64,000 bases of DNA from Thermoplasmata archaeon (GTDB taxonomy: Archaea; Thermoplasmatota; Thermoplasmata; Thermoplasmatales; Thermoplasmataceae). The position numbers and the translations under genes are program-made. The stretch is from the NCBI GenBank assembly GCA_021806235.1, contig JAJZXU010000017.1, positions 62,001 through 126,000 on the forward strand, given 5' to 3'. This document shows, piece by piece, positions 31,842 to 34,833 of the stretch. Position 1 is the first letter of the stretch, and every line of letters starts with the position of its first letter. Under the pieces are notes generated by a model. The model searched no databases. It was not told the origin of the DNA and saw only the letters and a list, made by a program, of their open reading frames with translations.

Positions 31842-32726
31842 TTATAGGAAACCAGCTTTCTGTAATGTTAATAAATCTTCTGTAGTTAGTTGTTCACCGG
31901 CCTTAAATTTCTCATATAAAGCTGATGCTTTTTCCTGCAATTCAGATTCTTTCTCCTTCTTTTTTGTTACCTTAGTTTTATTTCTGATAGAATATATAGC
32001 CTTTTCAAGATCCCTTAAATCATTTTTGGATTTAATAAAAGCTGCATGCTCTGACTCAGATTCTTTACTGTGTTTTATAAATATTTCGTGGTTTTCATCT
32101 GCTTCTTTCCTTACATTATCAAGCTGCTGCAACTCCTCGTTTATTTCATCACTCAGTTTTGATATCTGATTTGATAAATCCTCTATTTCCTTTTTAAGTG
32201 ATTCACCAAGGGCTCTTTCACTGGTTGTTTTGTCCGTTAACTCTTTTATATCCTTATTCTTTAAAAGTTCCTCTTCTCTCTGAGTTTTTGCTTTCTTGAT
32301 TTCATTAGTTAACCTTCTTATGTCAACAATAATCTTATTCTCATCTTCCTTTGTAAGCTCAGTTGTTTGCTGTCTTTTTTCAAGGTACTGAAGTTCCTTT
32401 TCCTTCATTTTTATATCCTTTAATCCAAGGCCAGCACCAAAACCAGATTTGAGTTCTCTTAAATTCTTCTTAAGGTCTGATAAATTTTTGTAATGCTCTT
32501 CTTTTTCGTCTCTCAAAACTTTTATTTTGTCTATTAACTCATTTTTCTCAGCTATCTTTTCTTTCGCATGTTCACGCATATCGTGTGTTTTCTGATTAAG
32601 TTCATCACGTTTTTTTGCATATTCCTGCGCTTTGGCATTGGCTTCATCTCGCTTTTTAATGTGGAGTTCTACCTCATCTCTGATAGTTTCCTTTTTTGTT
32701 TCAAAATCTTCTAAAAGGTCGGTCAT
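31842..32726 (-). CDS. Archaeal coiled-coil protein (COG1340-like)
   Basis: From the ATG at 32726 the 294-residue product is almost wholly coiled coil: heptad-rich Glu/Lys/Leu sequence over residues 5-255, with a short Gly-rich break (SGFGAGLGLKDIKMKEKEL) near 95. A C-terminal segment EKFKAGEQLTTEDLLTLQKAGFL is conserved in this archaeal family. The function is unknown; these proteins are cytoplasmic and have been compared to SMC-like or phosphatase-linked helices. An IscB element has inserted right in front of the start codon, so the original promoter has been moved or replaced. Confidence 0.75.
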   Translation of the reverse strand: MTDLLEDFETKKETIRDEVELHIKKRDEANAKAQEYAKKRDELNQKTHDMREHAKEKIAEKNELIDKIKVLRDEKEEHYKNLSDLKKNLRELKSGFGAGLGLKDIKMKEKELQYLEKRQQTTELTKEDENKIIVDIRRLTNEIKKAKTQREEELLKNKDIKELTDKTTSERALGESLKKEIEDLSNQISKLSDEINEELQQLDNVRKEADENHEIFIKHSKESESEHAAFIKSKNDLRDLEKAIYSIRNKTKVTKKKEKESELQEKASALYEKFKAGEQLTTEDLLTLQKAGFL

Positions 32727-33616
32727 CAGGATACCTCCAAGGATACCCACCTATTCAGGGGTGGGAGGAATTGAAGGTTAAAGTTCAGCCCCTTGCCATA
32801 CTTCCTTAGCTGTACCTTTTTTACGTTTACATCCATCTTTTTTCCCCCTTTTTTAATAATCACTTGTTTGCCAACACTATGGATTCCCACTACGTCCCAT
32901 TCCTCTTTCTGGAATAGAACAGGAGCCCCCAGTTGCAATGAATACATTCTCTTCCGTATAGAAGGTTTAAAGCCCTTCCTGTTCAGCTGCAGGCAGCGGT
33001 TGTTCCTTCTTCTCTGGCTTACCATAAACAGTGATGTTCTCTTCTGTGTTGATCCACCGGCTATGATAAATGCATCATTAGTATGTGTTTTCTCTATTCC
33101 AAGGGAAATACGGTTTTTCTTTGTTATGGACCCAGGAGTGGTTTCACATCCCCGGAGCCATGCTATTTTTTGCTTTACAACATTCATAAATGGTGCTTCC
33201 TTATCTCCAGAGAGGAGTTCTGATCTTTCTGTCACCACTGAGAAATCTGTGTACTTAGAGCCGGGATCTGTTCCAAGTTTAACCTGCTGTTTTGCCTCTC
33301 CTGTTGCATAGAGTAGCTGTATAGTGAATGGTGATCTCTGGATAACCTTTGCTCTGCCTTTCTTCAGAAGTTTTCTTGCCTTGGTTGGTGCTGCTGGCAT
33401 TAATGGTTGGTTTCGCATGTTTAAAACGGGAACTCTCAGGTCCCGTACAGTCATGCCTGACTGTAGGTCCACATCGGGATTGTTAGAAGAGGTTTTTAAA
33501 CCCGGCACACTGAGAGTTTTCTCTCTGTTTAATGCATGGTCACAGTTGCCACGGGTTTGTGGAGCATCCGTAGGTGTGTATGTATTTCTCCGATCTAACT
33601 TCTGCTTTTCTTTCAT
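32726..33616 (-). CDS. iscB: Internally deleted IscB (PLMP + RuvC-I + RuvC-III, no HNH)
   Basis: The 296-codon frame (the IscB homology starts at a second ATG, 33454) has the PLMP domain (VPVLNMRNQPLMP ... ARKLLKKGRAKVIQRSPFTI), RuvC-I with Asp117 in LGTDPGSK, then jumps at about residue 138 to the post-HNH part (FMNVVKQKIAW). It continues into RuvC-III (LGIEKTHTNDAFIIAGG, His178/Asp181) and the C-terminal domain (NRCLQLNRKGFKP ... WDVVGIHSVG). The bridge helix, RuvC-II Glu and whole HNH are missing, against 400-500 residues in active IscB. It should be unable to cut DNA, yet the frame is intact. The last codons are read through the right-end hairpin, and its TGA shares a base with the next gene's ATG. 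Confidence 0.8.
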   Translation of the reverse strand: MKEKQKLDRRNTYTPTDAPQTRGNCDHALNREKTLSVPGLKTSSNNPDVDLQSGMTVRDLRVPVLNMRNQPLMPAAPTKARKLLKKGRAKVIQRSPFTIQLLYATGEAKQQVKLGTDPGSKYTDFSVVTERSELLSGDKEAPFMNVVKQKIAWLRGCETTPGSITKKNRISLGIEKTHTNDAFIIAGGSTQKRTSLFMVSQRRRNNRCLQLNRKGFKPSIRKRMYSLQLGAPVLFQKEEWDVVGIHSVGKQVIIKKGGKKMDVNVKKVQLRKYGKGLNFNLQFLPPLNRWVSLEVS

Positions 33617-33695
33617 ATTTTCAAAGCCCCCTAATCAACTCTTGCGTTGCCCTCATGGGACAAGCCAACCCCTAAAGAGGTTGGTAGTTGACACT
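32735..33695 (-). mobile_element. IscB-type IS element (IS200/IS605 superfamily ends)
   Basis: The left end is at about 33695 (GTCAACTACC then the hairpin CCAACCTCTTTAGGGGTTGG, plus-strand 33665-33684). The right end is near 32735 with the hairpin CCCACCCCTGAATAGGTGGG. There is no tnpA, as is usual for IscB elements that move in trans. The right end abuts the start codon of the coiled-coil gene. A second copy of the left-end region lies at 47.5 kb. Confidence 0.7.
33440..33695 (-). ncRNA. Probable IscB omega-RNA
   Basis: IscB elements encode their guide RNA just upstream of the gene. This stretch aligns closely with 47520-47647: shared words include CATGAGGGCAACGCA, GTTGATTAG, GGGCTTTGAA and GCAGAAGTTAGAT. 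It contains several hairpins, including CTACAGTCAGGCATGACTGTA. The guide would be the ~16 bases just beyond the left end (plus-strand 33696-33711). The conserved scaffold overlaps the 5' part of the longer iscB frame, which supports ATG 33454 as the real start. Confidence 0.55.
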
Positions 33696-34145
33696 AACAC
33701 TTCTATATCTTTATGTAAGAACAATGATAAAGTATGATACAGTTATCATTGCTCTCACAATTAAAATTCGTATTTAAAGAAACTATATAAGTATTACTAT
33801 AAACCGTAACTGGTCAGTCTGACGTACCAATAGTTATTATAACATATAGTGTTAATGCCCTATTCAACAGTTCCTCCGGCTATTTCCATAGAAATAAATT
33901 GTTGCTGTTATTAACATATGTTATTTTTGGTAATTTTTCATATTTTTTTTAGGCAATTTTTATCGGGTGGAGATTAATACATGCACATGAGACTCCCACG
34001 TTACTAATACCAGATACTGGAAATTCTGAATTGCAAAGGGTATTTATGGAAATGGTGTTAAATTTTCTTATATTCATCCTGATAGGGAAAAAATACCCCT
34101 GGCCTTAAATGCTGCTAAAACTGAAAATTTTATTCGGCCCGTTTA
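33696..34145. other. Interval without intact genes
   Basis: Between the IscB left end and vapC no complete gene is seen. The stretch has a homopolymeric T run near 33945 and an isolated protein-like frame at 34030-34167, listed separately. The rest is A/T-rich and featureless to me. Confidence 0.35.
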
Positions 34146-34167
34146 CTACCCCTGGCGCAGGGTATAA
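34030..34167 (+). pseudogene. Protein-like fragment of unknown origin
   Basis: After a stop at 34027 the plus strand reads 45 codons, beginning IAKGIYGNGVKFSYIHPDR and continuing EKIPLALNAAKTENFIRPVY, to a TAA at 34165. There is no start codon near the beginning and the end overlaps vapC antisense. The composition looks like a real protein, so I read it as a gene remnant, but I cannot name the family. Confidence 0.3.
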
Positions 34168-34601
34168 ATATTTTCAAGGGGATTTATAATTTTAATATCA
34201 TACAATCCTGTGAAATCTTTAACGTTTTCGGTATAAATTTTCTTTACACCATTTTCAATAGCGGTTTCAATTATCAACGTATCCCAGAATGGCTTATTCA
34301 CTTTGGTGCACATTTCTATTGCCCTGCCAACTGTATTATGTGTATAATTAACTTTCTCCCACCTGCTGGAATATATAAGATCGTTTACTATTGCATACGC
34401 ATCAATGTCTGGCAATTTATGCCTTACCTTAGAGGTAATCACAAAAAAAAATTCTCCGATAATCTGATTGGATATAACTCCGGTTATATTGCCATTTTCT
34501 ACCTCCATGAAAAGAGATGCTGCCTTTCTATTCTTATCTGGCTCATGCGTATCAAAGGCATAAACCAGAATATTGGTATCAAATAAAATTCTATCTTTCA
34601 T
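34146..34601 (-). CDS. vapC: PIN-domain toxin VapC
   Basis: From the ATG at 34601 the 151-residue product is a PIN-domain ribonuclease. The acidic metal-binding residues are in ILFDTNILVYAFD, NQIIGEFF, and PFWDTLIIETA, with a final TENVKDF. The ATG overlaps the end of vapB by 11 bases, the normal coupling of such toxin-antitoxin pairs. Free VapC cleaves RNA (often initiator tRNA or rRNA) until bound by VapB. The upstream portion of the longer frame only shadows vapB. Confidence 0.88.
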   Translation of the reverse strand: MKDRILFDTNILVYAFDTHEPDKNRKAASLFMEVENGNITGVISNQIIGEFFFVITSKVRHKLPDIDAYAIVNDLIYSSRWEKVNYTHNTVGRAIEMCTKVNKPFWDTLIIETAIENGVKKIYTENVKDFTGLYDIKIINPLENIYTLRQG

Positions 34602-34833
34602 GAAGTTCATCTCTGGTATTATATATAACACCACCAAGATCGTATCCCTTATTTAACCTATTTAATAAATCAATATCTGCATTTTTTGAATTTATGTTGT
34701 CAATTAATAATTTGAATGCATCCTCAACAGCTTTGCCTATATTCCCTTTCTTGTTTCCATATGCTTTTATTATAGCCTCTCTGAATTTTTTGTCGATCTC
34801 TTCGTCTATATTTACTGTAAGTGTTCTTGTCAT
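34591..34833 (-). CDS. vapB: Antitoxin VapB
   Basis: The 80-residue protein has an N-terminal ribbon-helix-helix-like segment (RTLTVNIDEEIDKKFREAIIKAYGNKKGNIGKAVEDAFKLLI) and a C-terminal tail that would wrap the toxin (LNRLNKGYDLGGVIYNTRDELHER). It overlaps vapC and should autoregulate the pair. The pair sits between the IscB element and the cobalamin operon, a typical setting for a mobile toxin-antitoxin pair. Confidence 0.82.
   Translation of the reverse strand: MTRTLTVNIDEEIDKKFREAIIKAYGNKKGNIGKAVEDAFKLLIDNINSKNADIDLLNRLNKGYDLGGVIYNTRDELHER

What the first reader, a model, noticed from the sequence alone, without database searches (positions are those of the whole stretch)
32726..33616. 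Nuclease-deleted IscB with an intact frame and a preserved omega-RNA region
Seen: PLMP, RuvC-I Asp and RuvC-III His/Asp are present, but the bridge helix, RuvC-II and HNH are missing through one in-frame deletion, giving 242-296 codons without a stop. Known: nuclease-dead TnpB derivatives (TldR) act as RNA-guided repressors. Inference: this may be an IscB counterpart that binds but cannot cut, or an early decay product whose frame has not yet broken. The guide-adjacent left end is still present.
Basis: partly seen in the sequence, partly recalled or inferred. Interest (0 to 1): 0.82.

Follow-up and report, generated by a model that had tools for sequence, protein, structure and literature searches.

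The report
Truncated IscB element docked at start codon
A cut-down copy of an RNA-guided mobile element sits exactly in front of a host gene's start codon, as nearly all its sister copies do, and its unbroken reading frame is better explained by translation running into that host gene than by a new RNA-guided repressor.

Summary
The 296-codon ORF at 32726-33616(-) is an IscB with one in-frame 175-codon deletion (bridge helix, RuvC-II, HNH), and its HEARO/omega-RNA region is intact (97 bits, gathering 83). The TldR-like reading is not supported. The deletion occurs in no other genome of the 77 searched in the family. The insertion is absent from all nine congeners, including one whose downstream protein is 99% identical. 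Private substitutions look near-neutral (16 N: 10 S), and the guide has no second target in the genome. The copy is one of about 20, mostly internally deleted, in this archaeal (Thermoplasmata) genome. What stands out is family-wide. 50 of 57 readable copies abut the ATGA/GTGA start of a downstream ORF of at least 100 codons (background 13%, p about 5e-37). The right end brings a Shine-Dalgarno-like sequence, and the element ORF's stop usually overlaps the host start by 4 or 1 nt. Deletion derivatives keep an open frame to that overlap more often than chance (17/30 against 1/3, p about 0.006), even when almost no IscB is left. Best explanation: a non-autonomous IscB element whose ORF acts as a translationally coupled leader for the host gene. 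Coupling itself is inferred, not shown.

The parts
32727..33692 (-). Whole element, 966 bp, inserted between ...GTTAG(T/C) and the ATG at 32726 of the DUF7121 gene
   Evidence: Empty site in all nine congeners; G002 reads ...AGATATAGAAGTGTTAGC|ATGACCGACC. Element length.
32726..33616 (-). Truncated IscB ORF, 296 codons: PLMP, RuvC-I, RuvC-III and C-terminal region; bridge helix, RuvC-II and HNH deleted
33463..33692 (-). HEARO / omega-RNA scaffold, overlapping the first ~50 codons of the ORF
   Evidence: Rfam RF02033, 97 bits, full model 1-211
33664..33683 (-). Left-end hairpin CCAACC-TCTTTAGG-GGTTGG; two pairs differ from the family consensus by compensatory double changes
   Evidence: 4 of 6 pairs of the helix change on both sides across copies
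33694..33712 (-). Guide position: AAAGATATAGAAGTGTTAG, the native leader of the downstream gene
   Evidence: Same sequence directly precedes the ATG in the empty site of G002; no other genomic match with fewer than 3 mismatches
32726..32836 (-). Nested mini-ORF in the IscB frame: ATG at -110 with AAAAGGGGGAAAAAAG upstream, ending at the host start codon
   Evidence: ATG in the -90 to -130 window, mostly at -110, in 45 of 58 copies
32734..32738 (-). Right-end Shine-Dalgarno-like GGAGG, 7 nt before the host ATG
   Evidence: sequence; SD-like motif in this position in 53 of 58 copies
32724..32728 (-). TGATG: element ORF stop (TGA) and host gene start (ATG) overlap by one base at 32726
31842..32726 (-). 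Host gene DUF7121 (coiled coil, 294 aa), conserved in all ten genomes of the genus
   Evidence: Pfam PF23435 4e-22; orthologues 79-99% identical
33770..33779 (-). Putative native promoter TATA element CTTTAAATAC upstream of the insertion, conserved in congeners
   Evidence: conserved in empty-site alleles; promoter role inferred

Best explanation
This is a non-autonomous, internally deleted IscB (HEARO) mobile element. It inserted, after the split from the closest held relative, exactly between the leader and the start codon of the DUF7121 gene, because the element family docks at RTGA (ATGA/GTGA) and in this clade almost always at start codons. Both ends are kept, so it probably can still be moved in trans by the single full-length IscB copy and a Y1 transposase. 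Transcription from the native promoter would give leader-guide, omega-RNA, truncated ORF and DUF7121 on one RNA. The right end supplies a new Shine-Dalgarno, and the ORF stop overlaps the DUF7121 start (TGATG), so ribosomes translating the remnant can reinitiate on the host gene. Selection for that coupling, not for the truncated protein, would keep the frame open. Shown: deletion, ends, exact insertion site, overlap, family-wide rule, excess of open frames. Inferred: trans mobilisation, coupling, and the selective cause.
For: Precise empty sites for DUF7121 and nuoB. 50/57 readable copies abut the start of an ORF of at least 100 codons, against 13% of RTGA sites; including the G083/G084/G082/G072 set, 57/67. 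Host genes recognised from their N-termini include rpoB, rad50, nuoB, ileS, leuS and NAD kinase. Stops at +1 or -2 relative to the start give the 4- and 1-nt overlaps that support termination-reinitiation in an archaeon and in E. coli (PMC10666635). SD-like motif before the junction in 53/58 copies. Open frame from IscB ATG to junction in 24/37 derivatives (17/30 after collapsing), null about 0.33. Mini-ORF with its own SD, ATG mostly at -110, in 45/58. Element ORFs at two sites shared by G000 and G002 are still open in both, with weak protein constraint (0.44, 0.53) beside strongly constrained host genes (0.04-0.07). Three of four IscB copies checked in G084 and the one in G177 end with the ATGA overlap.
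Against: No expression or ribosome data. The right end is also needed for transposition, so DNA constraint there cannot be separated from translation constraint. The SD-like motif alone could drive the host gene without coupling. About 43% of collapsed deletion classes have a broken IscB frame, though most still keep the mini-ORF. The collapsing of copies into classes was done by hand. Some copies (e.g. C5, C15c) do not abut a long ORF. Some IscB relatives in another family (G144, G164) do not show the overlap.
Confidence: 0.68

Rival explanations
1. Neutral decay: an internally deleted, dead copy whose frame happens to be still open because the deletion was a multiple of three and is recent.
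For: Insertion unique to this genome and absent in a very close relative. Private substitutions 16 N: 10 S, p = 0.125 against neutral, similar to the frankly broken copy C15a. One in three deletions is in frame by chance.
Against: Frame-open derivatives are in excess across the family (p about 0.006 after collapsing), including very short ones and ones shared between two species. The excess says nothing certain about this single copy.
Confidence: 0.22
2. TldR-like domesticated IscB: the truncated protein binds the omega-RNA and a guide-matched DNA site and represses without cutting.
For: PLMP and C-terminal domains and the omega-RNA scaffold are retained; pairwise dN/dS with other copies is 0.17-0.34, although that mostly reflects the intact ancestors.
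Against: No orthologue with this deletion; site not conserved; near-neutral private changes, several in RuvC-I; bridge helix and RuvC-II core missing, which IsrB keeps; guide has no second target; other deletions remove different parts, including PLMP.
Confidence: 0.04
3. Cis regulator: the omega-RNA and truncated protein tune their own transcript and thereby DUF7121 expression.
For: Location in the leader of a conserved gene; published IsrB work reports that the omega-RNA terminal hairpin contains the Shine-Dalgarno and contacts PLMP (PMC9581776).
Against: No conservation of the arrangement; the shortest derivatives lack both PLMP and most of the omega-RNA.
Confidence: 0.06

Closest known systems
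IscB / HEARO elements (OMEGA, IS200/IS605 superfamily; Rfam RF02033)
   Same: PLMP-RuvC-HNH protein in the full-length copy, HEARO RNA overlapping the ORF start, terminal hairpin, RTGA-adjacent insertion. From memory, unverified here: the 2009 HEARO description reports integration upstream of ATGA or GTGA.
   Different: This copy lacks bridge helix, RuvC-II and HNH. In this clade the RTGA is nearly always a host start codon, and the element's stop overlaps it.
IsrB
   Same: Lacks HNH; PLMP, RuvC and a C-terminal domain.
   Different: IsrB keeps the bridge helix and a complete RuvC (PMC9581776); this copy does not.
TldR (nuclease-dead TnpB repressors)
   Same: Transposon-encoded RNA-guided nuclease homologue without nuclease function.
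   Different: TldRs descend from TnpB, keep guide-RNA and DNA binding and show conserved gene associations (PMC13418256); none of that is seen here.
Non-autonomous internal-deletion derivatives of insertion sequences (MITE-like)
   Same: Both ends kept, variable internal deletions, several copies of the same deletion at different sites (C23/C28).
   Different: Open reading frame to the right end is retained above chance.
Translationally coupled gene pairs (-4 and -1 nt overlaps)
   Same: Same overlap geometry (PMC10666635).
   Different: The upstream cistron is a mobile-element remnant, not a functional partner gene.

Membership tests
IscB/HEARO element | Homology to IscB protein | tested here: met
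   PF14239 2e-22; PDB IscB chains 3e-12; NF040563 91 bits but below the 175-bit cut-off
IscB/HEARO element | HEARO / omega-RNA upstream, overlapping the ORF | tested here: met
   RF02033 97 bits, full model
IscB/HEARO element | Mobile: precise insertion with an empty site in relatives | tested here: met
IscB (active RNA-guided nuclease) | RuvC-I, bridge helix, RuvC-II, HNH and RuvC-III all present | tested here: not met
   bridge helix, RuvC-II and HNH deleted
IsrB | HNH absent but bridge helix and RuvC-I/II/III present | tested here: not met
   bridge helix and RuvC-II absent
TldR-like repressor | Inactivated protein conserved as such in related genomes | tested here: not met
   no other copy with this deletion in 77 family genomes; site empty in nine congeners
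TldR-like repressor | Purifying selection on the inactivated protein | tested here: inconclusive
   private 16 N: 10 S, ratio 0.58, p = 0.125 against neutral; full-length C31 4 N: 9 S; Fisher p = 0.096
TldR-like repressor | Guide complementary to a separate target site | tested here: not met
   only its own flank matches with fewer than 3 mismatches
TldR-like repressor | RNA and DNA binding without cleavage | not testable with these tools
   structure prediction uninformative: pLDDT 39.7, and 40.3 for the full-length control
Translationally coupled gene pair | Stop and start overlap by 1 or 4 nt | tested here: met
   TGATG at 32724-32728; +1/-2 stops family-wide
Translationally coupled gene pair | Downstream translation depends on translation of the upstream ORF | not testable with these tools
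   needs reporter or ribosome profiling

The most novel reading that the evidence does not exclude
A lineage of IscB elements that lives by start-codon docking: it targets the leader plus start codon of host genes, many of them probably essential, replaces the ribosome-binding site with its own, and ties the host gene's translation to its own ORF, so that even gutted derivatives are kept in frame and become hard-to-lose translational leaders.
Probability: 0.4. Interest if true: 0.72.

Novelty: new variant of a known kind. Interest (0 to 1): 0.5.

Why it matters
It removes a tempting candidate for a nuclease-dead IscB regulator. It also shows how an RNA-guided mobile element can occupy the most sensitive position of many genes, several of them probably essential, while remaining tolerable, by bringing its own ribosome-binding site and an ORF that ends on the host start codon. 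If coupling is real, intact frames in remnants of such elements are not evidence for a functional protein, a warning for any search for domesticated IscB/TnpB relatives.

Tried and rejected
TldR-like reading: tested through orthologues, empty sites, private substitutions and guide targets, and rejected as the leading explanation. AlphaFold2 on the truncated protein gave pLDDT 39.7, but the full-length control with the same six sequences gave 40.3, so it says nothing. The p-value used a preliminary count (54/61); the corrected count is 50/57. A scan of genome contigs with the full-length protein gave one relative, a Thermoplasmata MAG. The snoR35 Rfam hit at 32075-32156 is below its gathering score and is taken as chance. 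Literature searches for IscB/HEARO with start codons or translational coupling found no paper on this combination; the original HEARO paper is not held.

Full report
What is there. The ORF at 32726-33616 on the minus strand encodes 296 aa and is an IscB: Pfam RRXRR 2e-22, NCBIfam guided_IscB 91 bits against a cut-off of 175, and solved IscB chains at about 3e-12. Aligned with the full-length paralogue on contig C31 (475 aa) it has one 175-codon gap covering C31 residues of about 141-315, which hold the bridge helix, RuvC-II and HNH. PLMP, the RuvC-I Asp and the RuvC-III His/Asp remain. Rfam's HEARO model matches 33463-33692 in full at 97 bits.

It is one of many. The same genome (1.93 Mb, 37 contigs) holds about 20 related copies: one full-length (C31), others with different internal deletions (C28 and C23 share one; C10, C15 and shorter ones have others). 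HEARO is detected in ten of them. IS200/IS605-type Y1 transposase genes are present, nine matches, none adjacent to this copy. The C31 protein keeps the RuvC and HNH motifs, so it is the obvious candidate to act in trans; that is inference.

Where it sits. The downstream gene (DUF7121, PF23435) is present in all ten genomes of the genus, orthologues 79-99% identical, and none of the other nine has the insertion. In G002, whose protein is 99% identical, the empty site reads ...AAAGATATAGAAGTGTTAGC|ATGACCGACC; here it reads ...AAAGATATAGAAGTGTTAGT, then the 966-bp element, then ATGACCGACC. The boundary is uncertain by one base. nuoB shows the same...GAGGTGGATGAA|ATGAAAAATGG when empty.

The rule is family-wide. 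A sequence model of the right end found matches in 13 of 61 genomes. In the main set of 63 fetched copies, 57 have a readable RTGA junction, and in 50 of these at least 100 codons are open from exactly that codon. In the window only 13% of RTGA sites meet that criterion, giving p about 5e-37, or about 2e-30 after a rough collapse of shared sites. Adding copies from G083, G084, G082 and G072 gives 57 of 67. From their N-termini the downstream genes include rpoB, rad50, nuoB, ileS, leuS, NAD kinase, a DHH phosphoesterase and, in G002, hisS; these names are my reading of the translated N-termini.

Overlap and ribosome-binding site. The right end usually carries a GGAGG-like motif (53 of 58), and in the IscB frame a stop falls at +1 or -2 of the host start in the readable copies, giving ATGA or TGATG overlaps. 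In this copy the stop's last base, 32726, is the A of the host ATG. Overlaps of 4 and 1 nt are those that support termination-reinitiation in Haloferax volcanii and E. coli (PMC10666635). A nested mini-ORF with an ATG mostly at -110, usually after an SD-like sequence, is present in 45 of 58 copies.

Frame retention. Of 37 deletion derivatives with an identified IscB start, 24 are open to the junction; after collapsing shared sites and equal architectures by hand, 17 of 30. Random deletions in the C31 ORF reach the junction in 33%, giving p about 0.006 for the collapsed set. The open ones include ORFs of 42, 64 and 69 codons with almost no IscB left, so frame retention in general cannot be about nuclease-dead guide binding. 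At two sites shared by G000 and G002 (ileS and a gene of unknown function) the ORF is open in both species while its dN/dS-like ratio is 0.44-0.53, against 0.04-0.07 for the host genes examined.

Selection on this protein. Outside the omega-RNA overlap, changes private to this copy are 16 nonsynonymous and 10 synonymous (ratio 0.58, p = 0.125 against neutral). The full-length C31 copy has 4 and 9 (0.16, p = 0.002), and the broken copy C15a 12 and 7 (0.63). The contrast with C31 is suggestive only (Fisher p = 0.096). Several private changes fall in RuvC-I (LGIDPGYKHIGFS to LGTDPGSKYTDFS). Low pairwise dN/dS (0.17-0.34) probably reflects constraint in intact ancestors.

Guide and ends. The sequence in guide position is the native leader of DUF7121. 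No other site in the genome matches with fewer than 3 mismatches, and the reversed control pattern gives more hits than the pattern itself. The left-end hairpin is kept by compensatory changes: 4 of 6 pairs change on both sides across copies, and this copy has two such pairs. That supports constraint on the terminus, as DNA or RNA.

Judgement. The evidence favours a non-autonomous IscB element whose ORF is a leader coupled to the host gene. Coupling and trans mobilisation are inferred. Neutral decay of this single copy remains possible. The TldR-like reading has no support beyond the retained domains. Insertion next to ATGA/GTGA is, from memory, already reported for HEARO; the start-codon occupancy, the overlap and the excess of open frames in remnants are what may be new, and I found no paper on them in the held library.

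Noticed in passing
L021 (G000:C34:54000-55500), element before a leuS-like gene: The element's interior contains a stretch resembling group II intron domain V (GAGCCGGATGCGGGAAAACCGCAAGTCCGGTTC), perhaps an intron remnant inside the mobile element.
   Followed up: no
G002:C37 (L074:861-2231): A near full-length IscB, open over 456 codons, has lost the RuvC-I Asp (LGIGPGY), part of the bridge helix and a Cys of the HNH zinc site, yet reads through to the start codon of a hisS-like gene.
   Followed up: partly
G000:C23 (L170) and G002:C4 (L116), nuoB start: Both genomes carry an element at the nuoB start codon, but the right ends differ: independent insertions at one site, gene conversion, or an assembly break in a repeat.
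   Followed up: no
G000:C15 (L171) and G002:C30 (L124), DHH-family gene start: Same insertion site in two species with different internal deletions (1037 and 452 bp elements), suggesting deletion in place after a shared insertion.
   Followed up: partly
L162, L163, L103, L147: Several short derivatives share an internal segment encoding roughly GNAAWTGTERFHLSFLQIF that is not in the full-length IscB; origin unknown.
   Followed up: no
window 34146-34833, minus strand: PIN-domain protein (34146-34637) with a small overlapping upstream ORF (34591-34833), probably a VapBC-type toxin-antitoxin pair.
   Followed up: partly
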